64,000 bases of DNA from positions 1-64,000 of the forward strand of contig JAFGDN010000032.1 of the NCBI GenBank assembly GCA_016932095.1, given 5' to 3'. The notes beneath the pieces are model-generated. The model searched no databases. It saw nothing but the letters and a program-made list of their open reading frames with translations, and was not told the DNA's origin. The DNA comes from Sedimentisphaerales bacterium. Its GTDB lineage: Bacteria > Planctomycetota > Phycisphaerae > Sedimentisphaerales > Anaerobacaceae. Positions 10,077 to 42,179 of this stretch are shown in pieces. A program made the position numbers and the translations under genes. Every line of letters starts with the position of its first letter. Positions within the stretch are counted from its first letter, which is position 1.

Positions 10077-10078
10077 CT

Positions 10079-10321: not shown

Positions 10322-10342
10322 ACTGTATTTTTTTACACATAA

Positions 10343-10358: not shown

Positions 10359-10374
10359 ATATAAACATCAAAAA

Positions 10375-24285: not shown

Positions 24286-25581
24286 ATGTTCGATTATGAG
24301 CTTGGTGTAATAGTCCTGATGTTGGTTTTCAACGCGGTATTTGCGGCTTACGAAATGGGACTTGCCTCCATTTCCCGCGCCCGTATCGCGGTTCTCGTCA
24401 GCGAGCGTAAAAAAGGCGCCGCGGAGGCCGCGTTTATGAAGGACCGTATGGAGGCCAGCTTGGCCGTAATTCAGCTCGGCATAACGCTTTTTGCAGCCGT
24501 CGCCGCTGCCGTCGGCGGAGCAGGCGCACAGGCCGCATTCGCCCCTTATCTGGCAAAAAGCTGGAATATCTCAATGACGCTCGCTCAGGTTATTGCCATT
24601 GCGTTTATCGTTATACCCCTTATTCTGGTCACTATTATTTTTGCGGAGCTTGTTCCGAAAATGTTTGCTCTCAACAATAAGGAATGGATTGTCCTTCGGC
24701 TGTCGCCTGCTATGAAGATTTTGGCGCAAATCATCAATCCCGTTGTCTCAGTTATCGAAGTTGTTGTGAAATCGGTCGTCGGTGTCCTCTCCCGGCTACA
24801 GCCCAAAATCCTTAATGCACAGACGTCCTGGATTCACGAGCTTCGTGCAGCCGTATCGCTGGCTCGGACATCTAAACTTATGGGCGAACGCGAGGAAAAA
24901 ATCGTCCTCGCTGCCGCGCACCTTTCTTTGCACATGGTCCGCGACATTATGATTCCCGCCCAGGACATTTTCACGATTTTTGCCGGAAACTCTCTTTCGG
25001 AGGCGCTTGCGAAGGCACATCTCGATATGCACACGCGATTTCCCGTCTGCGATGTTGAAAATGAACCGCAGTCAATTCATAGTTACATAAATTTCAAGGA
25101 TATTGTCTCGGCTCTTCGGATTAATCCCTCAGACCCCTCCGTTAAAGGAATTTCGCGCCCGATAACAAGGGTCTATGAAGACCTTCCTCTCTCGAAGCTG
25201 CTCGAAAAGATGATACAGGAAAAGGCGCATATCGCTATCGTGGTCTCCAGCGACGATAAGGTCTCCGGATTGGTAACGCTTGAGGACGTAATTGAGGAGC
25301 TTGTCGGAGAAATCGAGGATGAATTCGACCGGCTGCCCACTCACGTTCATCCCTGTCCATCCGGCTGGATTATGGGCGGCGGCGTCCCGATGACTACCGT
25401 TGCCTCGACCGTCGGCCTCGACTGGTCGGCAAAATTTACGGGCCGGTCCCCGACCCTGGCAGAATGGTGCGGCCACCTAAAAGCAGGCGAGACGTTTGAA
25501 TCTGATAATCTCCGTGTAGTTCCGAGAAAGTTCAGACGCAAAAAGCTCTCCGAAGCCATCGTCTCCCGAATTACTGCCTGA
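24286..25581 (+). CDS. CNNM/CorC-family protein (hemolysin-like, DUF21 plus CBS)
   Basis: An N-terminal DUF21 membrane domain of about 190 residues (LMLVFNAVFAAYEMGLASISRARI, FAELVPKMFALNNKE) is followed by a pair of CBS domains (VRDIMIPAQDIFTIFAG and KAHIAIVVSSDDKVSGLVTLEDVIEELVGEIEDEFD). A C-terminal CorC/HlyC transporter-associated domain follows, of about 75 residues (WIMGGGVPMTT...). Family members export or regulate Mg2+/Co2+, or affect membrane integrity. The ATG at 24286 is the only plausible start. Confidence 0.9.
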   Translation: MFDYELGVIVLMLVFNAVFAAYEMGLASISRARIAVLVSERKKGAAEAAFMKDRMEASLAVIQLGITLFAAVAAAVGGAGAQAAFAPYLAKSWNISMTLAQVIAIAFIVIPLILVTIIFAELVPKMFALNNKEWIVLRLSPAMKILAQIINPVVSVIEVVVKSVVGVLSRLQPKILNAQTSWIHELRAAVSLARTSKLMGEREEKIVLAAAHLSLHMVRDIMIPAQDIFTIFAGNSLSEALAKAHLDMHTRFPVCDVENEPQSIHSYINFKDIVSALRINPSDPSVKGISRPITRVYEDLPLSKLLEKMIQEKAHIAIVVSSDDKVSGLVTLEDVIEELVGEIEDEFDRLPTHVHPCPSGWIMGGGVPMTTVASTVGLDWSAKFTGRSPTLAEWCGHLKAGETFESDNLRVVPRKFRRKKLSEAIVSRITA

Positions 25582-25602
25582 TGAATTACACGGCGGGGCT
25601 TG

Positions 25603-25622
25603 TTCGGCCTGAGCTTGCCGAA
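25603..25622. repeat. REP-like hairpin TTCGGCCTGAGCTTGCCGAA
   Basis: TTCGGC and GCCGAA flank an 8-base loop. It sits in the 135-base spacer between the converging CNNM gene and the minus-strand cluster. It is of the same kind as the palindrome inside the 1012-residue gene at 34859-34880. It may serve as a terminator for both genes. Confidence 0.5.
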
Positions 25623-25716
25623 GGACCCGGCAAATTCAAACTATGGCTCTTTGGCAGGGGCGTTCGCGTCGTTTGGCTTGTCAGTTTGATTTTCGATTTG
25701 CGGCTTTGCCGATTTA

Positions 25717-26814
25717 TCAGATGTTGGGCTCAACCGATATTTTTTCAAGGCGGACTGGGACGCCGTTTATGTAGTATATCCCCGATGTTTCAGAATTTGG
25801 CTCAGCAGCCGCCGGTTTTACTTCTAATAAGTCCTTCGTTATGCCGAGCTCGTCGAAATACGCCTTGAGCTGCTCCGATGGCATATAATAATAACCATAA
25901 ACAGCGTTTTCGCCGATACAAATTTCTTTCCAGTAAAACCAATCCTGAGTCACAAATACAATCCAGCCGTAATTGTCGCAATGCTGGTTGCTTCGAAAAT
26001 TCTTTTCTTCCGCCTCTTTGAACACTATTTCATACGCATCAACAATTTTTTCCAACCAGTCGCGGCCTTCAAAGACCATATTCGGCTCAGCCGGCCTGCC
26101 GGCGGGCTTTCCCGCTTCAATCATTGATGGGTATAAAAGGTCTTCCGCCGGTTTTTTATCGCCAAATAATACTACCGGAGGCAAACCGAACCAAGGAACA
26201 CAACGCTTTCTATTAGAGAATAAGGCGATCACCACTGTCTGCTCTTTTGGCGGCACGAAATAGTTAGTGCTGCGTAAACCGCATTCCTTAAGGTATTCTC
26301 CCAATTCATATGACACCCAATCGTCTCCATAAACATTAGGACTGTATTCCGTACTGATATTGGTTTCCACATGAAATATGTATTTTCCCTTTTTTGTCAC
26401 AACCAGCATTCTTTCTGACGGTCGGATAGTAGGTAATGCGCCCAACAGCCACCAGGGTCTTCGTGTGTTCTTTATTCCCCTGTCAATGACATCTATGCAC
26501 TCCGGCAAGCATTCTTTTGGAACTTCACGGTGTTGAGACCACCATTTGACAATATTGGGATCTCTCTGGCGATAACTAATTATTTCTACAATTGCCTCAA
26601 AACTCGAATCTTCATCATGTCCGGTCAGCGGACTCCTCGCAGAGGTAAATCTAATGCTTTCTATTCCTTCACTCTTCAAACGCGACCATTTCCCAATTAA
26701 GCTTCTGTATTCTTTCCAGTTATCAGACGGCCGTATCTCGTAGATCTTGTAAACAAGATAAATTATAAGAATCAGGGCAATAGCTATATATATCTTTTTT
26801 CTTCTATTTGGCAT
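25717..26814 (-). CDS. Single-pass membrane protein, partner of caspase-like copy C
   Basis: No family recognised. The 365-residue protein starts with a basic segment and one transmembrane helix (KIYIAIALILIIYLVYKIYE, residues 6-25), then a mixed alpha/beta domain. It is a clear paralogue of the 334-residue protein at 31363-32367: both have RNWKEYRSLxGxW-like, KWWSxHHEVPKECLPEC, VPPKEQTxxIAIFSxR, VFEGRDWLEKIVD, WIxFVTQDWFYWK and EQLKAYFDELGITKxLL. It starts 6 bases after the stop of its caspase-like partner, the same spacing as in the other copy. Confidence 0.8.
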   Translation of the reverse strand: MPNRRKKIYIAIALILIIYLVYKIYEIRPSDNWKEYRSLIGKWSRLKSEGIESIRFTSARSPLTGHDEDSSFEAIVEIISYRQRDPNIVKWWSQHREVPKECLPECIDVIDRGIKNTRRPWWLLGALPTIRPSERMLVVTKKGKYIFHVETNISTEYSPNVYGDDWVSYELGEYLKECGLRSTNYFVPPKEQTVVIALFSNRKRCVPWFGLPPVVLFGDKKPAEDLLYPSMIEAGKPAGRPAEPNMVFEGRDWLEKIVDAYEIVFKEAEEKNFRSNQHCDNYGWIVFVTQDWFYWKEICIGENAVYGYYYMPSEQLKAYFDELGITKDLLEVKPAAAEPNSETSGIYYINGVPVRLEKISVEPNI

Positions 26815-26820
26815 AATATC

Positions 26821-28275
26821 TTACCAGTTTCTTAAATATACGCTCATTAAATCACCCATCCCTTTTAACCTGAAATTATTTATGGGGTCTTCAGGGCCAA
26901 ACCGTTCTTGTCGCCAGATTGTATATGCTAATGCATCGTAAAGATTCTCGCCTGCGCCTAATTGCGCCCATTCCCATTGAGTCCACATTTGAAAATCGGT
27001 TTCCTGTGGAAAAGGTTTAACTTTTGCTTCATTATACCATCCCTGATAAAAATGATTTCTGCTGCTATCAGCCATTCTCAATGCAAAACTCATATCAGAA
27101 TGTGGGATGTCCCAAAGCCCCTGTTGGCCCGCTTGACCCTCCACTAATTCATCATCTGCGTTTATTTTTAATCTGCCTGAATAACAGACATCAAAATAAG
27201 CAAACTCGAGAGAATCAAATCCCATCGTGGCAAAACTCTTTAGAGTTTCTTCATCCCGTCCAGATAAATCTTCACACCAGGGAGGAGCGTAATTGGGGTC
27301 GCAGTAATCCGAGCGTTTTATAGAAACAACTTGTCCATCATATAGGAAAACGTTTGTTCTTAAAGGTAAGGGTGTATCTTTATCTGTATAAAAATTGCCA
27401 TGCGTGCAACCTATATATAAATATTTTATATTCATATAACTTGCATACCAGGCAACATTGTCATAAGTAGCCAATTTACCTGATAATTTTGCATAAATGA
27501 TATTCCTTCTTGCGAACGAGTCCTGAATCTGCGCTACTGTTTTCCAATCGTATAATCTCAGGAACCGGCTGGGAAGAACTATCAAGGCCTGAACATTCGC
27601 CGACGAGTCCGGCTCATTGGGGTCTGTAACTTTTTTTGCGATGGATTGTCCGTTGACATCACCAAAACTGACATAATCGATATCATTCTGGTCTGCTGTA
27701 ATCTCCGAAGGGATAGAACCTAATATTGTATTTCCGCTAAATGTCTGCGACCAAACCAGATTTCCGCCGCCTGCATAAACATTAACAGAAAAATTCCCAT
27801 CACCTGGGTTATATGCGGCAAATGGCAAAGGCTGATTCTTTTTATAGTTCTCAGGTAAAACACAATAATATAAAGGTCTTGAAAAATCAATATAATCGAT
27901 GTTTGAACATGTTAAATGCCCATTTCTGTCAGCGCTTACCATTTTATATTGATGCTCACCAATTCCATATTCTGAAATATCAGTTGTAAGAGTTTTACTA
28001 TCTTTAAACCTGAATATTTCACCGACGTATTTCCCATCGGCTAATAAATAAACACGTTTTGTAGCGGATAACCAGTTGCTGACCCCAAAACCAATGTATC
28101 CATCATTCGCATCTCCGCTAATCTGAATTTGAATATTTGGGTCCCCGCTAAATATAAGCCATTCGTCGGCCATTGAGTTCAGGTCATAAACGTTGTAGTC
28201 TGACTGCCAGCCGGAAGCAAGGAGCGCAAAATCCTTAAAATCAACGAACGAATCCACGTATAAATCCATTGTCAA
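26821..28275 (-). CDS. Caspase-like domain protein with dockerin-like module, copy C, no signal peptide
   Basis: The 484-residue frame aligns over its whole length with the C-terminal half of the 1012-residue protein at 32374-35412. In order: a dockerin-like VDFKDFALLASGW, an Ig-like domain (VYLLADGKYVGEIFRFKDS), then a caspase-like fold with His292 in CTHGNF and Cys364 in FDVCYSGRL. Homology continues upstream of the TTG start at 28275 (PNWNFSNAGDGN), but no start codon or signal peptide precedes it. So this copy has lost its N-terminal half. An ATG two codons later, at 28269, is an alternative start. Confidence 0.75.
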   Translation of the reverse strand: MTMDLYVDSFVDFKDFALLASGWQSDYNVYDLNSMADEWLIFSGDPNIQIQISGDANDGYIGFGVSNWLSATKRVYLLADGKYVGEIFRFKDSKTLTTDISEYGIGEHQYKMVSADRNGHLTCSNIDYIDFSRPLYYCVLPENYKKNQPLPFAAYNPGDGNFSVNVYAGGGNLVWSQTFSGNTILGSIPSEITADQNDIDYVSFGDVNGQSIAKKVTDPNEPDSSANVQALIVLPSRFLRLYDWKTVAQIQDSFARRNIIYAKLSGKLATYDNVAWYASYMNIKYLYIGCTHGNFYTDKDTPLPLRTNVFLYDGQVVSIKRSDYCDPNYAPPWCEDLSGRDEETLKSFATMGFDSLEFAYFDVCYSGRLKINADDELVEGQAGQQGLWDIPHSDMSFALRMADSSRNHFYQGWYNEAKVKPFPQETDFQMWTQWEWAQLGAGENLYDALAYTIWRQERFGPEDPINNFRLKGMGDLMSVYLRNW

Positions 28276-28328
28276 AGTATTGCCGTCTCCGGCGTTCGAG
28301 AAATTCCAGTTCGGATGAGATAGTGATT

Positions 28329-29879
28329 TCAGCTCTTTGATGATATTTCCCGAATCAGGTTGACTTCGTTCATAAAGTTGATATCGTTAGTATCTTTTTG
28401 ACCTGTTACACTTTTCCAATATTCAATAATTTCATTCGTATCAGGCGGACTTTCAATGACTTTCTCTCGACGTTCAAATTTCTTGACGGGCCAAAAAACA
28501 ATATCGCGACGCTTATCTTCAGGAAGACCCTGTCGTCCCAATCCGGTAGATGTAAAGCTTATAACAGCCGAACCGCCGTCATCCCTAAAATCCTCGCCCA
28601 CGCTATACAACAGAAAGTTATCTTTGGTTTCTTTATAAATTAAAGAGCCATCACTATAAGGGTCAAGCGGCATTGATTTCAAGAAGCCGGCAGCAATAAG
28701 CTCGTCTAAAGAATCCGGAAACCGATTTTTATCGCCTTTGAACCGCAGAATCGCAACAATTGTTAGCAAGGCATTCTGACCTGCTTTCACTTGATAATAT
28801 TTGTGAAAGAGACGGGTGGGATTTGGAGAAAACATACCAAGGATATTGAAACTATCACAATCTTGGCAGCGAGATACATCCAATTTACGAAAGTAATTGG
28901 GGTCTCTGGCGTGAAGCTGCCAGGGTGTTTCTGTCCTGAGCGGTTCGAACAAGAAAAATATCTCTTCGGTGTTTTTAATCATTTCATTATGTGTTGGACC
29001 GACAAAACAACTCCAGAGTAGCTTGCATTTCAAGATAAAATTTTCATGGTTGCCGCACATTGTTTCAAAATAATGAGCCGTGCTCCAGGAAAACCGTCCA
29101 GTACCTCTTGAATTATATACAAATATTCTCTGTAGTATGTCATATAGTGATAACCTTTCTGTTTCAAAATCAAGAGCGCAAGTATCTTTTTCAAACTCTC
29201 CTTGTATGGCAAGCTGGAAATTCCTCAGGTCTTCCGTTGTAACCTCGCACTTGTCTATGATATTCATAGCGGCGGTCAACGCCTTTTCTTTAATAGACAT
29301 ACCATTTATTTGCTCAATCAAGAAGGATGGGGTTCGGCATTTTTGTCGGCCTGCTCGATAACAGGCCGATATATCTTCAAACCCTTTCTGATATTGCCCA
29401 TTAGCCGCATTTAGTTTGGCGTTCCAAAACATTGCTTCAACTAAATATCGCAAAGGGGCCAATTCCGGAAATAATATACTCATCATACCGTTTGCATCCC
29501 GGACATTTCTTTCAAGCCAATAATAGGGCTTGTGTGAAGCGGTCTTGAAGTATTCAAATGCCTCCTCATTCGAGGCCAGCCACTGCCCAAGCTTATTCCT
29601 GTTTGTGTCGTCGAAGTCCGTAGGCCAATCTTTCAATGGTTCTCTAAGTTCAACGGGCATTTTATGAAATGAGTCAAATGCTTTCTGATAATTATCAGCG
29701 GCGTTGTCGTTAGGGTCGTAATTTGGCGGAATGGTTATTTTGTTGTATTCGGCCACGTAATCAACTGTAACTTTGGGTTTGGCGGTCAAAACCAGGACTA
29801 TTTTCAAAACTAACAATACCAGCAAAATTCCTATCGCTGATAATGACCATTTTTTACTCGACCTTAATGATAGTTTCAT
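28329..29879 (-). CDS. Membrane-anchored protein with pseudopilin-like C-terminal domain, partner of copy B
   Basis: This 516-residue protein has one N-terminal transmembrane helix (LSAIGILLVLLVLKIVLVLT, residues 14-33). A long helical domain follows, and then a C-terminal stretch like the globular part of type II secretion pseudopilins in planctomycetes: KNRFPDSLDELIAAGFL, PLDPYSDGSLIYK, FLLYSVGEDFRDDGG. It begins 23 bases after the stop of the second caspase-like copy. It is in the partner position but is not homologous to the 334/365-residue partners. The function is unknown. Confidence 0.8.
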   Translation of the reverse strand: MKLSLRSSKKWSLSAIGILLVLLVLKIVLVLTAKPKVTVDYVAEYNKITIPPNYDPNDNAADNYQKAFDSFHKMPVELREPLKDWPTDFDDTNRNKLGQWLASNEEAFEYFKTASHKPYYWLERNVRDANGMMSILFPELAPLRYLVEAMFWNAKLNAANGQYQKGFEDISACYRAGRQKCRTPSFLIEQINGMSIKEKALTAAMNIIDKCEVTTEDLRNFQLAIQGEFEKDTCALDFETERLSLYDILQRIFVYNSRGTGRFSWSTAHYFETMCGNHENFILKCKLLWSCFVGPTHNEMIKNTEEIFFLFEPLRTETPWQLHARDPNYFRKLDVSRCQDCDSFNILGMFSPNPTRLFHKYYQVKAGQNALLTIVAILRFKGDKNRFPDSLDELIAAGFLKSMPLDPYSDGSLIYKETKDNFLLYSVGEDFRDDGGSAVISFTSTGLGRQGLPEDKRRDIVFWPVKKFERREKVIESPPDTNEIIEYWKSVTGQKDTNDINFMNEVNLIREISSKS

Positions 29880-29902
29880 ATTTCCGTCCTCAGTAAAAGG
29901 CG

Positions 29903-31285
29903 TTAATTTATGTATAGATCTCTAAACCAGACAAGTTGCCAACTAATAACGCCGTATGTTATGAAGTTATTTTCGATTTGGTTCCAACCCGGTCCGCTGG
30001 TTGCAAAGTCGAAGGCATCTTGGAGATTGAATCCCATAGCAAGATGCTCCCACAACTTTTCTTCAAATTGGTTATATTTCCCAATAATGTCATACACTAA
30101 AGCTGGTTCTCTCCATCCGATGAATATTACTTTACCTATATACGTAGGGTCTTCAATCGGCATTCCAAGTGATATCGGAAACTCATCCGTATGGCCGCTG
30201 TAACAGCAGTTAAACTGAACCCAGTTAAGTTTTGGATTACCATAAAGACCAAGTTCTCTTATCGAATGGTTGTTTTCATAATACCAAGACAGCGGCTCGT
30301 AGTCAGGGGGAATGTTATTAGGGTCATAATCTTTTCTAAGGCGTGAGAATACTAAACCGTCTTTGAAGTCTACACATTGCCTCGGCGGCTGACCTATCAA
30401 ATCATAGGCGCCGTGCGATACGTGATACCATTTCTTTACGTTATTCAAATTAAGGCAATATTGAACATTCTCAAAACTGCAATCTTCATTATTCAGATAT
30501 ATCGGCCATATTTTCTTTTTTACTGCTGCTGTAAGCACTGCGACAATACACCTCATTTTTGCCTGTTCAACATCTTCATTACCGCAGGAAACCAGCATCC
30601 TCGCCGGAGAGTCAGGAGGGTAATCGGCTTTATTGAACTTTCTATGCAGGATTATTTTTACTATTTCATCGTAAGCATCGCTAACCGTCAGCGTATAAGG
30701 AGCATACGCGAAACCATTGCTATCTGATATAGGCACGAAAGTATAGGACGATATATGGGCGTTTATCGAATCTTCGAAAGTATCGCTGTAAACTACGCTT
30801 TCGGTGTAATTATCGTATAACTCCACCGTGTAATTTCCCGAACCTATACCATAAAGAGTATAATCAAGGCTGGGTCTGAAACCGTTTTCAGCAATAAAGT
30901 ATGATAAATGGTTGTTAAATGAAACGTCTATCGGCTGCGAGCAGATTATATTTCCATCTTCATCGACCCCGACAATATTAAAAGAGTGCAGTCCATTAGA
31001 GTCACACATACTATTGACTACCATAGGCCATTCCGTTGGAACATCTGTCGTAGCTCGCAACTGTCCATCCATAAAAAGAAATACCTTTCCCATTATTTCT
31101 TCATTGCTATCAACTGTAACATTTACATAACCATGAATATTATTAGGGTCCTGGTCAAAAACAAGCGTAAGTTCAGGATAAACACTTTCGGTTTTCAGCC
31201 AGTCGAAGGCAAAACCGGATAAATCCCAAATGTCATACGTCGTCGGCCAGGAATCGGCAAAGAGCGCAAAATCGAAAAAGTCCAC
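29903..31285 (-). CDS. Diverged caspase-like protein with dockerin-like module, copy B, no signal peptide
   Basis: The 460-residue frame starts with GTG at 31285 (AAGGA 7 bases upstream). Order of parts: a dockerin-like DFFDFALFADSW, two beta-rich domains, then a caspase-like fold with His291 in VSHGAYD and Cys361 in FNCCYSGHTD. The 70-residue His-Cys distance is close to the 72 of its two relatives. A later IFIGWREP strand and GFNLQDAFDFA helix fit the same fold. Homology to the other copies extends upstream of the start (YPNWGFSNTG), which suggests N-terminal loss as in copy C. Confidence 0.72.
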   Translation of the reverse strand: MDFFDFALFADSWPTTYDIWDLSGFAFDWLKTESVYPELTLVFDQDPNNIHGYVNVTVDSNEEIMGKVFLFMDGQLRATTDVPTEWPMVVNSMCDSNGLHSFNIVGVDEDGNIICSQPIDVSFNNHLSYFIAENGFRPSLDYTLYGIGSGNYTVELYDNYTESVVYSDTFEDSINAHISSYTFVPISDSNGFAYAPYTLTVSDAYDEIVKIILHRKFNKADYPPDSPARMLVSCGNEDVEQAKMRCIVAVLTAAVKKKIWPIYLNNEDCSFENVQYCLNLNNVKKWYHVSHGAYDLIGQPPRQCVDFKDGLVFSRLRKDYDPNNIPPDYEPLSWYYENNHSIRELGLYGNPKLNWVQFNCCYSGHTDEFPISLGMPIEDPTYIGKVIFIGWREPALVYDIIGKYNQFEEKLWEHLAMGFNLQDAFDFATSGPGWNQIENNFITYGVISWQLVWFRDLYIN

Positions 31286-31362
31286 AATATCATCCTTATG
31301 TAAATCCCATCTTGAAACGCCGGTGTTAGAAAAACCCCAGTTGGGATAGTTAACCTGTCGGT

Positions 31363-32367
31363 CTATTGGTTCACGTCCGCTGTGTTTTCGTCGTTTTGGT
31401 CGGCAACATTCATTTTGCCCGTCAATAGTTCCTTCGTTATGCCGAGCTCGTCGAAATAGGCCTTGAGCTGCTCTGATGCCATATAATCACCCAATACTGC
31501 ATTTGCATCAAGATAAATGTTTTTCCAGTAAAACCAATCCTGAGTCACAAATATAATCCAGCCATAAAATTTACAGTTTTTGCTTTGGAATTTCTTTTCT
31601 TCCGCCTCTCTGAAGGCGATTTCGTATTCATCAACTATTTTTTCCAGCCAGTCGCGTCCCTCAAATACCATTTTGGGCTCAAGCAATTTTCCAAATAATT
31701 CTTTGGTCCGTTTTTTGTCGCCGAACAACGCAACCGGAGGCCAATCGAGAAGAAAGTCCTCGCGATGAATGCGTGAGGAGAATATAGCAATAGATATGGT
31801 TTGCTCTTTTGGCGGAACGAAATATCTAGTTGTTTGTAAGCCGCATTTTCTAAGGTATTCTCCTAATTCATGGGACACCCAATTGTCTCCATAAACTTTA
31901 GACATAGCCACAATAGAAATATCAGAGTCTGCATGAACTATATACTTACCCCTTTTTGTAACAACAAGCATTCTCGCGACCGGCCAGACGCGATAATTCG
32001 GCAACCACCGCCAACGCGCATCTTTCATTGTCCTGTCAAGAATATTTATGCACTCCGGGAGGCATTCTTTTGGAACTTCATGGTGGCGAGACCACCACTT
32101 AACAATAGTTGCGTCTCTCTTGCGAAAACTAAACCACTCTAAAATTCCCTGAAACCCTGAATCTGTATCATCGCCTGTTTGCGGACTCCTCGCATAACAA
32201 AACATAATATTTTCTATTCCCTCCTTCTTCAATCGAGGCCAAATCCCAACCAAGCTCCTGTATTCTTTCCAGTTCCGGGAAGGCCATCTCTCGTATCCTT
32301 TGTAAATAAGATAAATCGTAAATATCAGAGCAATTGCTGTATATAACTTTCTTCTTTTTTTAAGCAT
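31363..32367 (-). CDS. Single-pass membrane protein, partner of caspase-like copy A
   Basis: This 334-residue protein has an N-terminal transmembrane helix (KLYTAIALIFTIYLIYKGYE, residues 7-26) and a roughly 300-residue extracytoplasmic domain. It shares long blocks with the 365-residue protein at 25717-26814. Aromatic-rich motifs (KWWSRHHEVPKECLPEC, FVTQDWFYWK) are conserved in both. The start codon follows the stop of the 1012-residue gene by 6 bases. No enzymatic motif is evident. A role as anchor, inhibitor or substrate of the caspase-like protein is possible but not shown. Confidence 0.8.
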   Translation of the reverse strand: MLKKRRKLYTAIALIFTIYLIYKGYERWPSRNWKEYRSLVGIWPRLKKEGIENIMFCYARSPQTGDDTDSGFQGILEWFSFRKRDATIVKWWSRHHEVPKECLPECINILDRTMKDARWRWLPNYRVWPVARMLVVTKRGKYIVHADSDISIVAMSKVYGDNWVSHELGEYLRKCGLQTTRYFVPPKEQTISIAIFSSRIHREDFLLDWPPVALFGDKKRTKELFGKLLEPKMVFEGRDWLEKIVDEYEIAFREAEEKKFQSKNCKFYGWIIFVTQDWFYWKNIYLDANAVLGDYMASEQLKAYFDELGITKELLTGKMNVADQNDENTADVNQ

Positions 32368-32373
32368 AATATT

Positions 32374-35300
32374 TCACCAGTTTCTTAAAATTACATCTTC
32401 AATATTTCCCTGTCCTTTCAGGCGGTAACAGTTTACAGGGTCGTTAACATCAGAAAAATGCTCTTGCCGACTGATAGCATCATTTATTGCCTCACTAAGA
32501 TTCCCTCCTAAGCCCAACCACATCCACTCATCCTGAGTCCACTGCTGATAGTCGGTTTCGAAAGGCCAGAATTTTGTAAAAGGTATATCGTACCATCCCT
32601 GATAAACGCGGCTTCTGCTTGGTTCATGCATCCCCAGAGCCAAACTCATATCGGATATAGGACTATCAAAAACAATGCCCATTTGCCCCGGCTGGCCAAA
32701 AACTAATTCGTCATTATCATTTATCATTAATCTGCCCGAATAACAGGTGTCAAAATAAGCAAATTCAAGAGAGTCAAATCCCATTGAATAGAAACTCTTT
32801 TTCTCATCTTCGTCTCGTCCCTTTAAATCTACACACCAGAAAGGCGCACTGTTTGGATCGCAAAAATCCGATCGTTTTATAGAAACAACTGCTTCGTTTG
32901 GGTATAGATACACAACTGTCCTAAATATTCCATCATCTGGATCTATCCAAAAATGACCATGCGCGCTAATGTATAAATATTTGATATTTTTATTCTGCGC
33001 ATACCAAGCGATTTTATCGTAAGTGGCTTTTTTCCCTGATAATTTTGCATAAATGATTCCTCTGAATTTCAATGCTTCTTCAATAAACCATGGAGTTTGA
33101 GAGTCGTATAATCTCAGTAACCAATCGGGAAGAACGATTAAGGCCTGAACGTTCGCAGAGTCGTCCGGCTCATTTGGATCTGTTATTTTCTTTGCGATAG
33201 ACAGGTCGTTGCTGTCGTCGAAGCTGACGTAATCAATATCGTTCTGGTCTGCTGTAATCGCCGCGGGGATAGAACCTAAAATGCTGTTTCCGCTAAAGGT
33301 CTGCGACCATACAAGATTCCCGCCGCCTGCATATACCTTGACAGTAATATCCCCGGCACCGGAATTATAAGCGGCAAAAGGCAATGAGCTGCCTTTCTCG
33401 TATGTCTCAGGTAAAACGCAGTAATTCAGCGTCCTTTGAAATTTGGCTTTGTTGACATCCGAGCAGGTAATCCGGCCGAACTTGTCAACATCAATTAGTT
33501 TTACTTCCATCAACCCATTGGAATCTGAAATATCGGTTGTGAGGGTATAATCGTCTTTGAACCTGATTATTTCGCCGACGTATTTGCCGTCTGCTAATAG
33601 AAAGATGCGTCTGGTATCTAATGAGTATCCGGCGGCCCCAAAATCAACATACCCATTATTAGAGTCCCCGCTAATCTTAATTTGTATGTTGGGGTCTGCG
33701 GTCTTGAGCCATTGTTCTGCTAATATATCAAGGTCGTTGCAGTCAACAAAGCCGTTATCATCGAGGTCGGCGTCCGCAGAAGCTGACTGCCACCAATAAT
33801 TGGCTAATTCAGTAAAATCTTTGAAATCAACAACCTTACTATCATCCAGATCAGCCGACAATGAATTGCCCAATCCCGGGTTTGAATAATCCCAGTTTGG
33901 ATAATGATAGCCAATATCGGTAAAGTTGCTATCGGGGGAACGGTTTACGTCGGTGGTTTTGCCGATGAGGGGCGTTTGTTCGATATATTCGTAGCCGTTA
34001 TTTACGAAGTTGCAGTCGGTGCGAAGATAATATGTTCCGTCCGGGCCCGCTATAAAAGGGAAATTGGCCTCGTAAACCGGATTATATTCAACCTCCTCAA
34101 AATCAACGCATATATTGACTGCGTTACTGTAATAGCCGTTGCAGGCAATCAGCGGATAGAAATATCCGTTTCCGCATAGGCCGTAACTGCTCGACCGTGA
34201 TATGATATTATTGGCTATTACAACCCGGCCGGCGTAATCGGGCAAAATCGGCCCGTCCAGCCAGATACCATACTTCTGCCCGTCGCAGGTGTTATTTTGT
34301 ATGGCGATGTCGCTGTTAAAATATTGAACACATTTGCTACCCTTCACTTCGCCCATATATATGCCGGCTTTTATCGCGGTATCGCTCGTCTGCTCAAATA
34401 AATTATTAATTATATCGGTATGCCTGTCCCACCCATTCACGCTGATTCCATTCTCATTGTTGTAGAAATAATTATTCTCAATCGGATGGTCAAGCCGAAC
34501 GTTGTATAGATATACGGCAGTTTCGGCCCCGTAAAAATGGCTGTATGTTATTTTTGTCTGCGTTGAAGCATTGCCGCTGATACTTATCGCGTGCCAGTAT
34601 GACTGGTTGCTATCAGCACGTGTATATATAATCGGCTTATCAGGCGTGCCTGCCGAAATCAGACACCCGCCGTTTGAGACGCCCAACTCCTTGTTCGGCA
34701 TAAATTCAATCACAGTCCCCGGCTCTATAACCAAAAGCGCATAAACTGCTACGCAATAGTTCCAGCCGTTAATGCGATACCGGTTATCCGCAGTCCAGAT
34801 TTGATTTGTCGTTATGTTATCGGTTATTTCAATTACGTTATCAAGGAGCATTTCGCCTGCCCCGAGCGTAGTCGAGGGGCCGCCGCCACCGCCTTCTGGT
34901 TCGTTCCCAATCGTTTCTTCGTCCTTGATTACGGCGGGTAGCTCGCCGGTTTCCTCCTCATACTGTTCACCTTGTTCTTCCTCGGACGGGATAATGTCGG
35001 GCAGGCCTGCATAAAGGACGCTGATGATATTGGCTTCGCGGTCGCAGAAAAAATAAAGCTGACAGATTGTCGTTCCCGCCGGCACAAACCTTCCTTCGAT
35101 TGAAATATCAACGTTGGCAATCAATAAAGCGTTACCAAACGTCGATTCGGCGTCGAATTTGAAATGGTATTGGTTATTAACGCCGGGCAATTCGACGAGT
35201 GTGCCTCCTGTTGCTGCAACGGATACATCGTTCGGCCCAACAGGGGTATTTCCATCGACTGCGACCAGAAAAGGACCAATTCCTTCTATCATAAGCGGAG

Positions 35301-35412
35301 CGCCGGCAGGATTTTCACCATTTACGGTCAATATCACATCAGCGTTGGCAATTGAACCTCCTAATACAATAATACCTGCTGCCAAAACCGACAGGATGTG
35401 TTTTCGCTTCAT
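32374..35412 (-). CDS. Secreted beta-helix, dockerin-like and caspase-like protein, copy A (full length)
   Basis: The 1012-residue protein is the only complete member of the local trio. A signal peptide (MKRKHILSVLAAGIIVLGGS) is followed by a cohesin-like beta domain, an acidic linker with a Gly-run, and a right-handed beta-helix (about residues 190-500). A dockerin-like pair comes next (VDFKDFTELANYWW, VDCNDLDILAEQWL), and then an Ig-like domain. The caspase-like domain has His818 in SAHGHF and Cys890 in FDTCYSGRL. The YISxHGH / FDxCYSG pair matches the His-Gly and Asp-x-Cys-x-Ser-Gly motifs of clan CD peptidases. AAGGAG lies before the ATG at 35412. Peptidase activity is an inference. Confidence 0.82.
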   Translation of the reverse strand: MKRKHILSVLAAGIIVLGGSIANADVILTVNGENPAGAPLMIEGIGPFLVAVDGNTPVGPNDVSVAATGGTLVELPGVNNQYHFKFDAESTFGNALLIANVDISIEGRFVPAGTTICQLYFFCDREANIISVLYAGLPDIIPSEEEQGEQYEEETGELPAVIKDEETIGNEPEGGGGGPSTTLGAGEMLLDNVIEITDNITTNQIWTADNRYRINGWNYCVAVYALLVIEPGTVIEFMPNKELGVSNGGCLISAGTPDKPIIYTRADSNQSYWHAISISGNASTQTKITYSHFYGAETAVYLYNVRLDHPIENNYFYNNENGISVNGWDRHTDIINNLFEQTSDTAIKAGIYMGEVKGSKCVQYFNSDIAIQNNTCDGQKYGIWLDGPILPDYAGRVVIANNIISRSSSYGLCGNGYFYPLIACNGYYSNAVNICVDFEEVEYNPVYEANFPFIAGPDGTYYLRTDCNFVNNGYEYIEQTPLIGKTTDVNRSPDSNFTDIGYHYPNWDYSNPGLGNSLSADLDDSKVVDFKDFTELANYWWQSASADADLDDNGFVDCNDLDILAEQWLKTADPNIQIKISGDSNNGYVDFGAAGYSLDTRRIFLLADGKYVGEIIRFKDDYTLTTDISDSNGLMEVKLIDVDKFGRITCSDVNKAKFQRTLNYCVLPETYEKGSSLPFAAYNSGAGDITVKVYAGGGNLVWSQTFSGNSILGSIPAAITADQNDIDYVSFDDSNDLSIAKKITDPNEPDDSANVQALIVLPDWLLRLYDSQTPWFIEEALKFRGIIYAKLSGKKATYDKIAWYAQNKNIKYLYISAHGHFWIDPDDGIFRTVVYLYPNEAVVSIKRSDFCDPNSAPFWCVDLKGRDEDEKKSFYSMGFDSLEFAYFDTCYSGRLMINDNDELVFGQPGQMGIVFDSPISDMSLALGMHEPSRSRVYQGWYDIPFTKFWPFETDYQQWTQDEWMWLGLGGNLSEAINDAISRQEHFSDVNDPVNCYRLKGQGNIEDVILRNW
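34859..34880. repeat. REP-like palindrome inside the 1012-residue coding sequence
   Basis: GCCCCGAGCGTAGTCGAGGGGC folds as an imperfect hairpin. It is translated in frame as PSTTLGAG after a Gly-run in a linker. It looks like a repeat inserted in a place where it does no harm. Confidence 0.55.
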
Positions 35413-35709: not shown

Positions 35710-36360
35710 TTATACCAGCAGATAGGCCAGTTAAAGGTAGAACTTGACTGGCTCAAAAAAAATCTGGTCTTGACGCTTGAGCAAGAGCGTAACGCCATAG
35801 AGCCGGCCCATAAGAAGATACCAGTTTATCGACAGTGTGAGTAACTGGGGCTGAACCGGAGCAGTTTGTATTATAAATGCCGCAGGTGTACACAGTATAA
35901 CGAGATGCTAATGAAGCTGATAGACAAGCAATACGTTTAGACGCCGTTTTACGGCATAGACAAGATGACCGAATTCCTGTGTCTTCAGGGTCATCATGTC
36001 AATCACAAACGTGTCCGGCGATTGATGCGTCAGATGGGTTTGGAGGCGGTTTATCCTCGTAGAAAGTGTGGTTTGAGCATATCCAACAGGCAGCACAAGA
36101 TATATCCATACCTGCTAAGGGGGATTACGATTGCCCGGCCGGATCAGGTATGGTCGGCAGATATAACATACATTCGTATGTATCGCGGATGGCTTTATCT
36201 CGTAGCGGTGATGGACTGGTTCAGCCGGTATGTGTTGAGCTGGGAAGTATCGACAACGCTCGAATCTGAATTTTGCGTTACGGCATTGAAGCGGGCATTG
36301 TGTCGTGGCAGGCCTGAAGTATTCAATACTGACCAGGGCAGCCAGTTTACCAGCGATAAT
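35704..36360 (+). mobile_element. Degenerate IS3-family transposase (OrfB) remnant
   Basis: One frame from 35704 reads ELYQQIGQLKVELDWLKK, then a typical IS3 OrfB N-terminal region. It includes HVNHKRVRRLMRQMGLEA, RPDQVWSADITYIRM (DDE Asp), VMDWFSRYVLSWE and FNTDQGSQFTSDNY (second Asp). Two in-frame stops (TAA at 35842, TAG at 35938) break it, and the C-terminal part with the DDE Glu is missing. No terminal inverted repeats could be defined. It is inactive. Confidence 0.85.
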
Positions 36361-36504
36361 TATCAACAGGTCTCGGCAACGCCGGCGGGCAATGATTTTG
36401 TTGCAATATCGGCGGGATATTATTATTCTGCTGCCGTGAAGAAGGATGGCTCGATAGTATACTGGGGCAAGAACGATTACGGCCAGACGGTGCCTCCTGC
36501 GACG
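36361..36504 (+). pseudogene. RCC1-repeat protein fragment fused in frame to the IS3 remnant
   Basis: The frame continues from the transposase into SATPAGNDFVAISAGYYYSA, then VKKDGSIVYWGKNDYGQTVPP. This is one repeat of an RCC1-type beta-propeller (AxGxxHSxAxxxDGxVxxWGxNxxGQ). It has no start of its own and is flanked by transposase pieces on both sides. Confidence 0.75.
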
Positions 36505-36651
36505 ATGGAAAATATGGTTATGCCGGTCGAGCGGACCTTTTCCTGGCTGGGCAATAATCACCGACTGGTTGTCAGATGGGATCGTGATATTACTGTTTAT
36601 AACGCGTTTTTTCATATCGCTTGCCTTGTCACAGCTCTTAGGAGGTTATGA
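36505..36651 (+). mobile_element. C-terminal fragment of an IS5-family transposase
   Basis: The same frame goes on with VERTFSWLGNNHRLVVRWDR and ends with FFHIACLVTALRRL. This is the end of an IS5/IS4-type DDE transposase, whose catalytic Glu lies in the VERTFxWL motif. Only about 48 residues remain. It is inactive. Confidence 0.75.
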
Positions 36652-37019: not shown

Positions 37020-40000
37020 TCACCACAACCAATTGGCTGCAAAAGCGGCAAAGTCAGTGAAGTTAACCAAGCCACTCTGGTCTATGTCGGAACTGTTGCA
37101 CCACTCGGGCCCGGTACAACTGGTCAGCCAATAATTGGCAAGGGTACTAAGATCGGCCAAGTCCACATCTTCGTCAGGCTCAAAATCGCCTGCTATAGGA
37201 AACACCTCGTCGGCCCCCATATCGGCCCGACCATACAGCACTCGGGGTTCACCATCAATATCTATTTGGTCGGTGTAATTTTCAGTTGGGTCACCGGCGT
37301 TAATACAGGGTGAACCGCACCGCAGGTGATAATCGCCATCCATCCATACATCTTTCGAATCCTCAGGCGCAACGTTTGGGTCCCAATATCCCACTTGGAC
37401 ACAACGGGGAGCACTATCAATGTTGCCTGGCCCCCAATTCAGCGTACAGTCAGTGTCCACATATACTGCCCCGGAGTCACCTTGCACGTCGCTGTAGCTA
37501 ACCGAGATTGATGAAGGAACGCTTCCTCCCCAGGGATCGTTATAAAGGACTACGGCTATTTCGCTACCCCGTGTAGCCGTATCCTCCAACAAGATGCAGT
37601 TGACAATAGTTGGATTGCTATCAACCCAGCAGTAGATCGCACCACCATCGCAGTTTGCGGTATTGGCACTGATTATGCAGTTACTAATCACTGGGCTGCC
37701 TTGTTCATCGGCTATTGCCCCACCATAGGCTGCTGTGTTACCCGTTATGATGCAGTTCCTGATGGCGCCGAGAGGAAAGCTTACCCCGCCACCATATTTG
37801 CCGGCCGAGTTACCGCTGATGGTGCAGTTGCTGGTTGTACCGCATAGAGACATCCCCCCGCCGGCGAGCACTTTGGCAGAGTTACCACTGATGGTGCAGT
37901 GGTTGATCTGGCCGCCACATCTATACAATCCCCCGCCCTTGTTCTTAGCCAAGTTGCCTCTGATAGTACAGTTGCTGATCTCACCATCGCATCTATATAG
38001 CCCTCCACCGTTTGTGGCTAAGTTCCCACTGATAGTACAGTTGCTTATATTTCCGTCACACTCGTACAGGCCACCGCCATCGAGGATGGCTACTTCATTC
38101 ATCTTGACAGTGCAATTACTGATAGGACCGTTGCACTCATACAGCCCGCCGCCATTTTGACCCGCTCTGTTTCCGCTAATGATACATCTGGCAATCGAAT
38201 TGCACTCGTACAACCCACCACCATTCCAGTGGGCCCAGTTCATGGTGATCGTGCAATCGTTTAGCCGAGCGGGACCATAAACGCCGGCACCGCCACCATG
38301 CTGTCCTGGGAGGTAGTTATCATCTGTTATGTTCCCAGTTATAATGCAGTTTTTGATTGTCGGGGCGCTTCCGGTGCACTTGATGCCTCCACCAAAGTCG
38401 GCATAGCCGTTGGTGATTGTGAAGCCATCCACAACGGAGTCCTCTCCCTCACCGTTATGGAAGTAGAATCCACGATGTGGCTCAGTTTCCGTGCCATTGC
38501 AATCTATGATGCAATTATTCGGTCCGTTTTCGCTCCGTACCGTAATCGCCTTTACTTTAAAGTCAATATCGCGGTTCCCTTCTCCGGTATGTACGCCGTC
38601 AGCAACGATGACCACATTTCCTGTCGCTGCCGCATCTATTGCCGCCTGAATCGTTGGGTATTCCAACGGTACGGGTAATTCTCCTGCGGTATATAAGCGT
38701 AATTTCACCTCAACCAGTTCTGGACTGTTAAGGGCATTGGAATCCGAAACCGTCAACTTGCAATTATAGCTGCCTCCGGTAAGACCTGTTATATCTGCGC
38801 TGAGCGTAACTTCATCTAATTCGCCAGTCGAACTGCCCTCGCAGGGGTCGACGTCCAGCCAGTTGCACTCATAGGTTATTGCCCAATTCATGGTTCCTGA
38901 ACCGCTGTTGCGGATGTTAAGTATCTGAGTATCTGGATTTGAGCCACCCTGACGAACTTCGAATTTAAATTCTTCTGCCGATAGGACAATAACAGGTTCT
39001 TCGCAGGGCAGGGATTCGTAGACACCCATATCTGCGAGGGCTTGTCCATTATTGTCTCCATCTATTGGACGTGGCTGCCCATCTATGTCCGTTGCCGGTA
39101 GTCCCCCAACAGGACTATTCGTTCCTGCATCAACACACGGCGAACCAGGCCACAAATGATAATCGCCATTGTTTGGACCCACAAAGCATGGGTCAACATC
39201 AATGTTTCCAACTCCCCAGCTCACCTTTAAACCCTGCTCTGGGTCCACTGCTCCCTCCAGGTCCACTGCCCATCGGCCGCCCTCAACATCACTGTAGCAG
39301 ACCAAGACATTACATTCGTTCCTCAAGGCAAGCTCAGGCCCCTCGCCAGAAACAACTTCATTGTCCCATAAAACACAGTTGTAGATGGTGGGATTGTTTG
39401 CATCATAGCAACGAATGGCCCCACCTTTGGTAGTGGCTGAGTTACCGCTTATGGTGCAGTTCGTAATTATTGGGCTGCTGCCACGGCAATACATACCGCC
39501 TCCATAACGGGCGGAATTTTCAACAATGAGACAATTGCGGATTGCCGGTTTGCTATCGCAGCAGCAAAATATTCCTCCTCCCAGTACGCTGTAGTTATCA
39601 GCGATTATGCAGTTTTGGATGGTTGGGCTAGATTCGTTGCAGAAAACAGCGCCTCCGACCGACCTCGTTGAGTTAACTATCTGCTCCTTGGGACCATAAC
39701 CGTTTTTTATGGTAAAACCGTCGAGAACAGAATTGGCGTCCTCGTCAAAGTGGAACCTAAATCCACGGTGTGGTTCGGCTTCTGAGCCGTTGCAATCAAT
39801 AACACAGTTTTCCGGACCATTTTGGCTTTTAACGGTGATGGCTTTGCCTCCAAAATCTATGTCGCGATTCCAATCTCCGCTATATGTACCATCAGCAACA
39901 ACAACCGTCCCCCCGTTCCAGGAAACATCGATTGCCTCCTGAATGATGGTGTACTCGCTGGGGACATAGACGTCGCGCGGTCCAGCATCAGTGGTAAATG

Positions 40001-42179
40001 CATAACATGCACCGCCATTATCGTCCACAATTTCGTTACCATTGCCATCAGTAGCCTCAATTACAAAATAATAGTCAGTTTCAGGAAGAACACCGGTAAG
40101 TTGAATTGTGTGCGTAGTTACCAAAACTAAGTCAGTTGCTATTATGTCATTAGGCTCTCCACAGTCCTGACCGCACAATACGCGAGCGGCAGTGGGTTCG
40201 TTTGTTTCGAAGGTGACTGTCGGCTCTGGGCCGGGTATTTCAACTTGAACATTGAAAATCACCGCTCCCTGACAATCTGCTGTTGCGGTATCGGTTGCGG
40301 TGGCGGGACTACCGGTACCATCATTGGCATCATAATATTCTGCGGTGATAACGTCACCGTGCGAAAGTTGAACGATGCTGTCTTCGATATTCGGGTCACC
40401 CGAGCCAGTTGGAATTGACCCTGTAAAAACACCAAGAAAAGGCGAAGTTTCGGTTAGAGGAACTGTTTCCAAATCCCCTCCACTGCTCTCTACGATTACC
40501 TGCTGTGTTCCATTTCCTTTCAGGTCTGAATCCAGCAGTCTAATTCCTACAAGGTCACAACAGTTATAAACGTCGGCATCAAGAAAAATGTATCCGCGTG
40601 GACCACTCGAAAGCAGCTTTGTTGCCTGATGTAGATTCAATCTGCCTGAGATGCAGATTTCAGGGGAGATCGGGTCCGTGGACTGTAACAGAACCTGTTC
40701 GGCCTCGTTAACGTCTATTTCGGGATAAACGGATAGCAGCAAGGCGCAGGCGCCGGCCACATGTGGGCAAGCCATTGATGTGCCTGACATAATTGTTGTA
40801 TGACAACCGTAGGGTGTGTCCATGAACGTTGCGTTCGCGCGCAGTGATAAAATATCAACTCCAGGGGCAGCTATATCCACCCAATCGCCATATGTGGAAA
40901 AGGACGCTTTTTCGTCGTTGGAATTTGTTGCAGCGACGGAAATCACGTGGTCATAATGGGCTGGATAATGCGGTTCTGTGGAATTGTCGTTCCCGGCGGA
41001 AGCAACCACAACCACACCTTGGCTATGGGCATAGTTGATGGCTTCTTGCATTGTTTCCATATAATCGTCGCCGCCCCAACTGTTGGATATGATATCGGCT
41101 CCGTTTTCAATAGCATAATAAAAAGCCGATATTGCATCTGTGCTGGTGCCATATCCATCGATGCCAAGAAACTTAAGTGCCATTATCTTCGCGTTCCAGC
41201 AGACCCCTGTAATACCGAGGCCATTATCGCCCTCGGCTGCGATTGTTCCGGCGCAGTGCGTGCCATGGCCGGTATCATCCAATGGGTCGTTGTCGTCATT
41301 GATGAAATCATATCCGCAGAAACCGTTCGAATCGACCCACATGTTGTCATCCAGGTCCGGATGGGTGTAATCGACTCCGCTGTCCACTACTGCCACGATA
41401 ACTTCTGGACTTCCCGTGTTCACATCCCAGGCCTCAGGAGCGTCTATGTCGCAATCAAAAGTCCCCGGCGGGCTGTTATATTCGCCACTGTCCGGATAGT
41501 CCTGGGCCACATTGTTTAAAGGCCACTGTATTGGATAGAGTGGGTCATTTGGAGTAATGTCTGCTGAAACCACATAATTAAGCTCAGCGTATTCGACATC
41601 GTGGTCTTTGTCATAAGCTACTGCAACATCTTCCAGCGATTGCCCGACGTTAGGCTGAACCTGAACCTTGTATATCCTACCGAGGTTAGGCACTTTCGCT
41701 TCCTTAGAAGCACGTTTTAGTCTTTTGAGAACGTGTTTTTCTCGTTCTGTTAGATGGGTTTTATCCCTTTTCAGCAGGTCTTTTAGACACTCTCTGCGCT
41801 GCCTGAAGCTTTCGAAAAGGGGCTTGATATCACTAAAGCCAAATTTCTTGTTCAGCTTGTCCAGTGACTCAGACAGTTCCAACTGGCATGTGCCTTTGCC
41901 AGCAGAGATGTTTTTTTCAATGGCTAGCGCGACTGGCTCTTTGAATTTGATGATTATCTCGTTGGGAATGTAATCAAGACCTGGATGCGAGTTTCCTCCC
42001 TGCCTATCGAGGTCGACATTCGCCACCAGAGTAACTTCTGGCTTATGCGGGTGACTGCAAAAACGGGCATGAAGTATTCTTTCAGATTGGTGATATTTGC
42101 TCGGTAGGCATGGACTTGCTGCCCAAACAGCACTACTGAGCAAAAGGAGCACCGCGAAATATAGCAACGCAGCTTTCAT
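37020..42179 (-). CDS. Giant secreted subtilisin with two beta-helix domains, a BACON-like domain and dockerin-like tail
   Basis: The 1719-residue protein starts with a signal peptide (LLYFAVLLLLSSAVWA), then a propeptide-like region (IPNEIIIKFKEP...). The S8 catalytic domain is intact: Asp266 in VAVVDSGVDYTHPDL, His305 in GHGTHCAGTIA, Asn in ASAGND, Ser468 in SGTSMACPHVAG. Next come a fibronectin/Ig-like part and a first beta-helix (VPSEYTIIQEAIDV onward, about 735-960). A BACON-like domain follows (LSAEEFKFEVRQGGSNPDTQ), then a second beta-helix with about ten NCTISGN-type turns. The protein ends with a dockerin-like pair (VDLADLSTLANYWL, VNFTDFAAFAANWLW). It should act at or outside the cell surface. 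Substrates are unknown. Confidence 0.92.
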   Translation of the reverse strand: MKAALLYFAVLLLLSSAVWAASPCLPSKYHQSERILHARFCSHPHKPEVTLVANVDLDRQGGNSHPGLDYIPNEIIIKFKEPVALAIEKNISAGKGTCQLELSESLDKLNKKFGFSDIKPLFESFRQRRECLKDLLKRDKTHLTEREKHVLKRLKRASKEAKVPNLGRIYKVQVQPNVGQSLEDVAVAYDKDHDVEYAELNYVVSADITPNDPLYPIQWPLNNVAQDYPDSGEYNSPPGTFDCDIDAPEAWDVNTGSPEVIVAVVDSGVDYTHPDLDDNMWVDSNGFCGYDFINDDNDPLDDTGHGTHCAGTIAAEGDNGLGITGVCWNAKIMALKFLGIDGYGTSTDAISAFYYAIENGADIISNSWGGDDYMETMQEAINYAHSQGVVVVASAGNDNSTEPHYPAHYDHVISVAATNSNDEKASFSTYGDWVDIAAPGVDILSLRANATFMDTPYGCHTTIMSGTSMACPHVAGACALLLSVYPEIDVNEAEQVLLQSTDPISPEICISGRLNLHQATKLLSSGPRGYIFLDADVYNCCDLVGIRLLDSDLKGNGTQQVIVESSGGDLETVPLTETSPFLGVFTGSIPTGSGDPNIEDSIVQLSHGDVITAEYYDANDGTGSPATATDTATADCQGAVIFNVQVEIPGPEPTVTFETNEPTAARVLCGQDCGEPNDIIATDLVLVTTHTIQLTGVLPETDYYFVIEATDGNGNEIVDDNGGACYAFTTDAGPRDVYVPSEYTIIQEAIDVSWNGGTVVVADGTYSGDWNRDIDFGGKAITVKSQNGPENCVIDCNGSEAEPHRGFRFHFDEDANSVLDGFTIKNGYGPKEQIVNSTRSVGGAVFCNESSPTIQNCIIADNYSVLGGGIFCCCDSKPAIRNCLIVENSARYGGGMYCRGSSPIITNCTISGNSATTKGGAIRCYDANNPTIYNCVLWDNEVVSGEGPELALRNECNVLVCYSDVEGGRWAVDLEGAVDPEQGLKVSWGVGNIDVDPCFVGPNNGDYHLWPGSPCVDAGTNSPVGGLPATDIDGQPRPIDGDNNGQALADMGVYESLPCEEPVIVLSAEEFKFEVRQGGSNPDTQILNIRNSGSGTMNWAITYECNWLDVDPCEGSSTGELDEVTLSADITGLTGGSYNCKLTVSDSNALNSPELVEVKLRLYTAGELPVPLEYPTIQAAIDAAATGNVVIVADGVHTGEGNRDIDFKVKAITVRSENGPNNCIIDCNGTETEPHRGFYFHNGEGEDSVVDGFTITNGYADFGGGIKCTGSAPTIKNCIITGNITDDNYLPGQHGGGAGVYGPARLNDCTITMNWAHWNGGGLYECNSIARCIISGNRAGQNGGGLYECNGPISNCTVKMNEVAILDGGGLYECDGNISNCTISGNLATNGGGLYRCDGEISNCTIRGNLAKNKGGGLYRCGGQINHCTISGNSAKVLAGGGMSLCGTTSNCTISGNSAGKYGGGVSFPLGAIRNCIITGNTAAYGGAIADEQGSPVISNCIISANTANCDGGAIYCWVDSNPTIVNCILLEDTATRGSEIAVVLYNDPWGGSVPSSISVSYSDVQGDSGAVYVDTDCTLNWGPGNIDSAPRCVQVGYWDPNVAPEDSKDVWMDGDYHLRCGSPCINAGDPTENYTDQIDIDGEPRVLYGRADMGADEVFPIAGDFEPDEDVDLADLSTLANYWLTSCTGPEWCNSSDIDQSGLVNFTDFAAFAANWLW

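What the first reader, a model, noticed from the sequence alone, without database searches (positions are those of the whole stretch)
25717..35412. Triplicated module: caspase-like secreted protein plus membrane-anchored partner
Three consecutive minus-strand pairs share a design. The first gene encodes a dockerin-like module, a beta-rich domain and a His/Cys caspase-like domain (His818/Cys890, His291/Cys361, His292/Cys364, always 70-72 residues apart, with HG and CYSG motifs). The second gene encodes a protein with one N-terminal membrane helix. In copies A and C both partners are clearly homologous (334 and 365 aa) and the stop-to-start gap is 6 bases in each. Co-duplication of both genes suggests that they function together. 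I know no named system with this pair.
Basis: partly seen in the sequence, partly recalled or inferred. Interest (0 to 1): 0.82.

Follow-up and report, generated by a model that had tools for sequence, protein, structure and literature searches.

The report
Caspase-like protein cassettes with anchored partners
A planctomycete carries a full-length secreted protein ending in a caspase-like domain, followed by two cut-off copies of that ending, each with its own membrane-anchored partner gene; relatives show that the endings are swapped like cassettes, and in two of them the partner slot holds a serpin, a known protease inhibitor.

Summary
Six minus-strand genes form three pairs. Each first gene has a clan-CD (caspase-like) domain with His/Cys 70-72 residues apart. 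The predicted fold is confident (pLDDT 90) and its best non-Ig/FnIII PDB match is the caspase-like SAVED-CHAT protease. No Pfam family covers the domain. Only copy A is full length (signal peptide, beta-helix, dockerin-like linker). B and C begin at the dockerin and lack signal peptides, so they look like displaced 3' modules, not three secreted proteins.

The pairing is general. The domain occurs in 28 of 161 genomes of the order. In 39 of 40 loci with a close downstream gene, that gene starts with a lipobox or membrane helix (25 of 55 background). Cassette exchange is visible in congeners: one pair is 98-100% identical except a ~1-kb block over the caspase domain and partner anchor; another has the same module full length in one genome and orphan in the other.

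Two relatives have a serpin as the downstream gene, one at 12 bp. Best reading: secreted caspase-like proteases, each encoded with an anchored inhibitor, exchanged like polymorphic-toxin cassettes. Inhibition and catalysis are inferred, not shown. New variant of a known kind.

The parts
32374..35412 (-). A: full-length gene, 1012 aa: signal peptide, beta-helix (Pfam match 276-412), dockerin-like linker (~519-570), two Ig/FnIII-like domains (~574-745), caspase-like domain (~749-1012)
32959..32961 (-). catalytic His818 codon of A
32743..32745 (-). catalytic Cys890 codon of A
31363..32367 (-). A partner, 334 aa, one N-terminal membrane helix, two related alpha/beta repeats; family P1
31286..31348 (-). 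untranslated-looking stub YPNWGFSNTGVSRWDLHKDDI in frame with B, homologous to the end of A's beta-helix
   Evidence: sequence
29903..31285 (-). B: orphan module, 460 aa (GTG start), half dockerin, Ig-like, caspase-like; His291/Cys361
28329..29879 (-). B partner, 516 aa, N-terminal membrane helix; family P2, not homologous to P1; a relative (L094) has a weak GspG-like C-terminal stretch
28276..28320 (-). stub SHPNWNFSNAGDGNT in frame with C, homologous to the end of A's beta-helix
   Evidence: sequence
26821..28275 (-). C: orphan module, 484 aa (TTG start), half dockerin, Ig-like, caspase-like; His292/Cys364; 59% identical to A
25717..26814 (-). C partner, 365 aa, N-terminal membrane helix; 59% identical to A partner

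Best explanation
This is one active locus of a secreted clan-CD (caspase-like) peptidase plus two displaced modules of the same kind. The A product is exported by its signal peptide, with the beta-helix and dockerin-like linker as carrier and the caspase-like domain as the working end. The downstream gene makes a membrane-anchored protein that most likely binds and inhibits the cognate peptidase at the producer's envelope (an antidote). New [peptidase domain + partner] cassettes enter by recombination in conserved stretches (dockerin linker, Ig/caspase junction, caspase core) and push the old 3' end and its partner downstream, leaving orphan pairs such as B and C. Shown: fold (predicted), dyad, gene linkage, module displacement in relatives, serpins in the partner position. 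Inferred: proteolytic activity, inhibition, the target, and whether the orphans are ever exported.
For: Fold and dyad. Linkage: 39 of 40 close downstream genes are anchored versus 25 of 55 background genes, two further loci agree; partner class follows caspase phylogeny, 15 changes against 26.1 mean and 22 minimum in 300 shuffles. Inhibitor: a serpin (PF00079, 4e-121) lies 12 bp downstream in L071, and the closest caspase relative of that locus (71% identical) has a P1 partner like A's instead; a lipobox-bearing serpin (2e-101) is the next same-strand gene in L077. Cassette exchange: L096/L097 are 98-100% identical except a ~1-kb block over the caspase domain and partner anchor; L086/L092 hold the same module full length in one and orphan in the other, 93% over 3326 bp. 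Orphan and head stay under constraint: dN/dS about 0.18 (caspase) and 0.26 (partner) between A and C. The array is absent next to the conserved CNNM gene in three congeners.
Against: No partner fold match and no known inhibitor family apart from the two serpins. In L096/L097 the partner body is ~100% identical although the caspase domain changed, so P2 partners are not tightly cognate. The P2 family is common without caspase neighbours (83 of 89 genomes). Within P1 the caspase/partner distance correlation is weak (rho 0.17, p 0.03). Seven of 40 domains lack the His. In L077 the serpin is 656 bp away. L087 has no partner, and the downstream genes of L074 and L088 are not inhibitor-like.
Confidence: 0.58

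Rival explanations
1. A polymorphic interbacterial toxin system: the caspase-like end enters rival cells and the partner is an immunity protein for kin, specific to each cassette.
For: C-terminal caspase-like toxins with immunity genes and standalone cassettes are described (PMC3482391). Orphan modules and sharp domain replacement are seen here; distribution is patchy.
Against: No toxin-trafficking domain found; the carrier is beta-helix/dockerin. Partner body unchanged when the caspase end changed in L096/L097. Serpins would be unusual as immunity proteins.
Confidence: 0.25
2. The anchored partner is the substrate or surface anchor: the caspase-like domain is a processing or sortase-like enzyme that cleaves or joins the partner.
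For: Partner is membrane-bound and encoded next to the enzyme; clan-CD domains serve as processing peptidases in surface proteins (PMC3482391).
Against: Partners belong to several unrelated families, two are serpins, and no shared cleavage motif was seen in the alignments.
Confidence: 0.1
3. Ordinary expansion of a surface-protein family; partners are generic envelope genes carried along and the orphans are decaying pseudogenes.
For: Frameshifted or late-truncated copies exist (L022, L030, L021 6270-6461); P2 proteins are common elsewhere.
Against: B and C are intact over 460-484 codons, and A versus C has dN/dS well below 1; anchored-partner excess; serpins in the slot.
Confidence: 0.07

Closest known systems
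KLIKK protease-potempin pairs of Tannerella forsythia (PMC7296668)
   Same: secreted protease gene directly beside a gene for a small lipoprotein that inhibits it specifically; variation in both genes
   Different: proteases are not clan CD (own knowledge); the inhibitor gene precedes the protease there; no sequence relation found (only a weak signal-peptide-region hit to PotA, E 0.39); no orphan cassettes described in what was read
Bacteroides C10 proteases with staphostatin-like Bfi/Bti proteins; staphopain-staphostatin; SpeB-Spi (PMC3462683)
   Same: inhibitor gene 4-5 bp downstream of btpA and btpB, exported, some lipoproteins; a paralogue that lost a catalytic residue keeps its inhibitor
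   Different: papain-fold peptidases; unrelated inhibitors; no carrier beta-helix and no module exchange described there
Polymorphic toxin systems with Tox-Caspase ends (PMC3482391)
   Same: caspase-like domain at the extreme C-terminus, downstream gene, standalone cassettes by recombination
   Different: other carriers and export routes; no known immunity family found in the partners; rival killing not shown here
SAVED-CHAT (CalpL-type) proteases
   Same: caspase-like fold, best informative structural match (8tl0, E 2.9e-5, prob 1.00)
   Different: cytoplasmic CRISPR effectors; no sequence similarity detected; low TM (0.34 over the whole query)

Membership tests
Clan CD (caspase-like) peptidases | His and Cys each following a core beta-strand, His first | tested here: met
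   strand 239-242 before His245 and strand 311-314 before Cys317 in the model; Cys 43/43, His 33/40
Clan CD (caspase-like) peptidases | overall fold similar to a solved clan-CD structure | tested here: met
   SAVED-CHAT 8tl0, E 2.9e-5, prob 1.00; modest TM 0.34, the query also includes two Ig-like domains
Named clan-CD families (C11, C13, C14, C25, C50, C80, CHAT) | sequence match to the family profile | tested here: not met
   no peptidase family among 31 members in Pfam at E<=0.1; none for A-C at E<=10
Clan CD peptidases | peptidase activity | not testable with these tools
   needs purified protein
Protease-inhibitor operons (potempin / staphostatin / Bti type) | exported or anchored small protein encoded next to a secreted protease | tested here: met
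   39 of 40, plus 2; that the enzyme is an active protease is inferred
Protease-inhibitor operons | partner is a protease inhibitor | tested here: inconclusive
   serpin in two loci; other partners match nothing
Polymorphic toxin systems | conserved N-terminal carrier with exchangeable C-terminal end | tested here: met
Polymorphic toxin systems | orphan end/immunity cassettes downstream | tested here: met
   window B and C; L021, L024, L069, L070, L086, L092
Polymorphic toxin systems | known immunity family among the partners | tested here: not met
   no such profile in Pfam or, for the window partners, NCBIfam
Polymorphic toxin systems | dedicated delivery machinery | not tested
   no systematic search made
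Polymorphic toxin systems | kills or inhibits non-kin | not testable with these tools
   needs competition assays
Dockerin type I | profile match above cut-off | tested here: not met
   E 0.49, 11.1 bits against cut-off 22.9
Serpin (L071, L077 partners) | PF00079 over full length and GTEA hinge | tested here: met
   4e-121 and 2e-101; EEGTEA hinge in both sequences, canonical P1-P1' would read Arg-Ser in L077

The most novel reading that the evidence does not exclude
A cassette-swapping family of secreted caspase-like proteases confined to one planctomycete class, in which the antidote slot is filled repeatedly by unrelated membrane-anchored inhibitors, including serpins: natural bacterial serpin/caspase-like cognate pairs.
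Probability: 0.33. Interest if true: 0.8.

Novelty: new variant of a known kind. Interest (0 to 1): 0.62.

Why it matters
Endogenous targets of bacterial serpins are mostly unknown (own knowledge). A serpin next to a caspase-like protease, in the slot that its nearest relative fills with an uncharacterised lipoprotein-type family, names a target that can be tested in one assay. It also gives several unnamed protein families (the clan-CD domain, P1 and P2 partners) a joint functional hypothesis, and extends cassette exchange known from polymorphic toxins to beta-helix/dockerin surface proteins of Planctomycetota.

Tried and rejected
The search for related loci with P0007 found no relatives in genome contigs; A2 was too diverse; A6 gave four named loci, all Planctomycetota. 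Viral contigs: none. PADLOC: none. Partner fold search: nothing significant. PDB sequence profile of the partner hit PotA only over the signal-peptide region (E 0.39), rejected as evidence. P2 (516-aa family) as a caspase-specific partner: rejected, it is near universal in the family, though the members next to caspase genes are the closest ones. Mirror-tree test within P1 was weak. First single-linkage clustering of partners merged families through small-database E-values and was redone. A phylum-wide sample found the domain only in the window's own order; the class-wide one also found it in one further family of the same class.

Full report
What is in the window. Six minus-strand ORFs at 25717-35412 form three pairs. 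A (1012 aa) has a signal peptide, a beta-helix (PF13229, 4e-8), a dockerin-like linker, Ig/FnIII-like domains and a caspase-like end. B and C are homologues of its last ~490 residues only. The A and C partners are 59% identical; the B partner is unrelated to them.

B and C are not secreted copies. Their first start codons (B GTG, C TTG) lie at the dockerin linker. Directly upstream, in frame, lie stubs (NYPNWGFSNTG..., SHPNWNFSNAG...) homologous to A's HYPNWDYSNPG at the end of the beta-helix. So each is the 3' part of a gene like A, cut at the same place. C and A remain under constraint (dN/dS about 0.18 for the caspase gene, 0.26 for the partner; the caspase dS is near saturation, so the first ratio is rough).

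The domain. Across nine loci the only invariant residues are the His, the Cys, one Leu and one Gly. In 49 ORFs, Cys is kept in all 43 that cover it and His in 33 of 40; four have Asp and three Arg. AlphaFold2 on a 31-row alignment gives pLDDT 90.3 and pTM 0.88, with His and Cys each after a core strand. Foldseek finds mainly FnIII/Ig structures, as expected for the first half, and SAVED-CHAT (8tl0, E 2.9e-5, probability 1.00) as the caspase-like peptidase among the top matches. Pfam has no matching family. The fold assignment is therefore solid; catalysis is inferred, and the His-less members are probably inactive.

Distribution. The domain is in 11 of 89 genomes of the family by single-sequence search, 28 of 161 of the order by profile, 23 of 397 sampled from the class, and in a phylum sample only in the window's order. 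Named relatives are Planctomycetota, Sedimentisphaerales and Phycisphaerales MAGs. In the window's genus two of four genomes have it. In three congeners the conserved CNNM gene (window 24286-25581) is followed directly by another gene and the array is absent there, so the locus is accessory.

The partner slot. Of 49 caspase ORFs, 40 have a same-strand gene within 60 bp downstream, and 39 of those begin with a lipobox or membrane helix; the exception is the second half of a broken caspase gene. Other genes of 250 aa or more in the same loci give 25 of 55. Two more loci found later agree. Cases without a close partner call are contig ends, frameshifts, overlapping gene calls, one gap slightly over the limit (L030) and two genes of one distant genome (L077, L087). 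The gene finder is mechanical, so counts are approximate. Partners fall into several families: P1 (A and C type), P2 (B type), multi-spanning proteins, coiled-coil lipoproteins and others. Partner class follows the caspase tree (15 changes against a mean of 26.1 and minimum of 22 in 300 shuffles).

Serpins. In L071 the gene 12 bp downstream is a serpin (PF00079, 4e-121). The closest caspase relative of L071 is the orphan L070 3133-3618 (71% identical), whose partner is a P1 protein. In L077 the next same-strand gene is a lipobox-bearing serpin (2e-101), 656 bp away, with an unsupported opposite-strand ORF between. Ten of the 23 caspase genomes in the class sample have a serpin at all; with a few thousand genes per genome, two neighbours by chance is very unlikely (rough estimate of mine, expected about 0.005). 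This is the main reason to prefer inhibitor over substrate or anchor.

Cassette exchange. L096 and L097, from two genomes of one genus, are 98-100% identical over ~2.7 kb upstream and ~1.4 kb downstream (95-100%) of a sharply bounded ~1-kb block at about 36-85% identity that covers the caspase domain, the gap and the partner's membrane anchor. Both versions keep the dyad. In L086 and L092, also congeners, one module (dockerin part, Ig, caspase, P2 partner; 93% over 3326 bp) is the end of the full-length gene in one genome and an orphan behind another caspase/partner unit in the other; a 141-bp scar of the same linker lies downstream of the second unit in L086. Other orphan fragments: L021, L024 (two), L069, L070. 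L069's orphan and its partner match the head pair of L078 (81% and about 59%), so pairs travel together. This explains the window: A is the current head, B and C are displaced modules.

Limits. L096/L097 show that a P2 partner can stay while the caspase domain changes, so P2 may act generally or not be an inhibitor at all. P2 relatives are common without caspase genes. The P1 fold is only moderately confident (pLDDT 76.5) and matches nothing. Nearly all genomes are draft or metagenome assemblies.

Comparison with what is known. The layout matches protease-inhibitor operons: KLIKK/potempin in Tannerella (PMC7296668) and C10 protease/staphostatin-like pairs in Bacteroides, where the inhibitor gene lies 4-5 bp downstream of btpA and btpB and some are lipoproteins (PMC3462683). 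Caspase-like domains as the C-terminal end of polymorphic toxins, with immunity genes and standalone cassettes, are described (PMC3482391). This case differs in fold of the protease (versus the first two), in carrier and partner families (versus the last), and in using serpins. It is filed as a new variant, not as a member of either, because inhibition and kin-dependent killing are untested and no known inhibitor or immunity profile matches the window's own partners.

Noticed in passing
window 42358-47253 (-): A 1631-aa PKD/beta-helix protein with DUF6345 (5.5e-7) carrying SHG...FYSC motifs, that is, another caspase-like-looking domain on a beta-helix carrier next to the array.
   Followed up: no
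window 37020-42179 (-): A 1719-aa subtilase (PF00082) fused to polymorphic-membrane-protein-like beta-helices and a dockerin-like tail.
   Followed up: no
window 35965-36651 (+): An IS3-type integrase ORF that runs into an RCC1-like repeat: a chimeric or decayed insertion element beside the array.
   Followed up: partly
window 25581-25717: Synteny break: genes up to the CNNM gene are conserved in three congeners, the array side is not.
   Followed up: yes
L089, L093, L078, L083, L087, L090, L091: Caspase-like domains that have lost the His (Asp or Arg) but always keep the Cys; all except L087 and the contig-end L091 still have partners.
   Followed up: partly
L097 (reverse complement 8900-11600): About 2 kb extra between the partner and the next shared segment relative to L096, flanked by ~260-bp direct repeats.
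   Followed up: no
G000-G088, family-wide: The 516-aa P0003 family, with a weak GspG-like C-terminal stretch in one member, occurs in 83 of 89 genomes, often several copies, function unknown.
   Followed up: no
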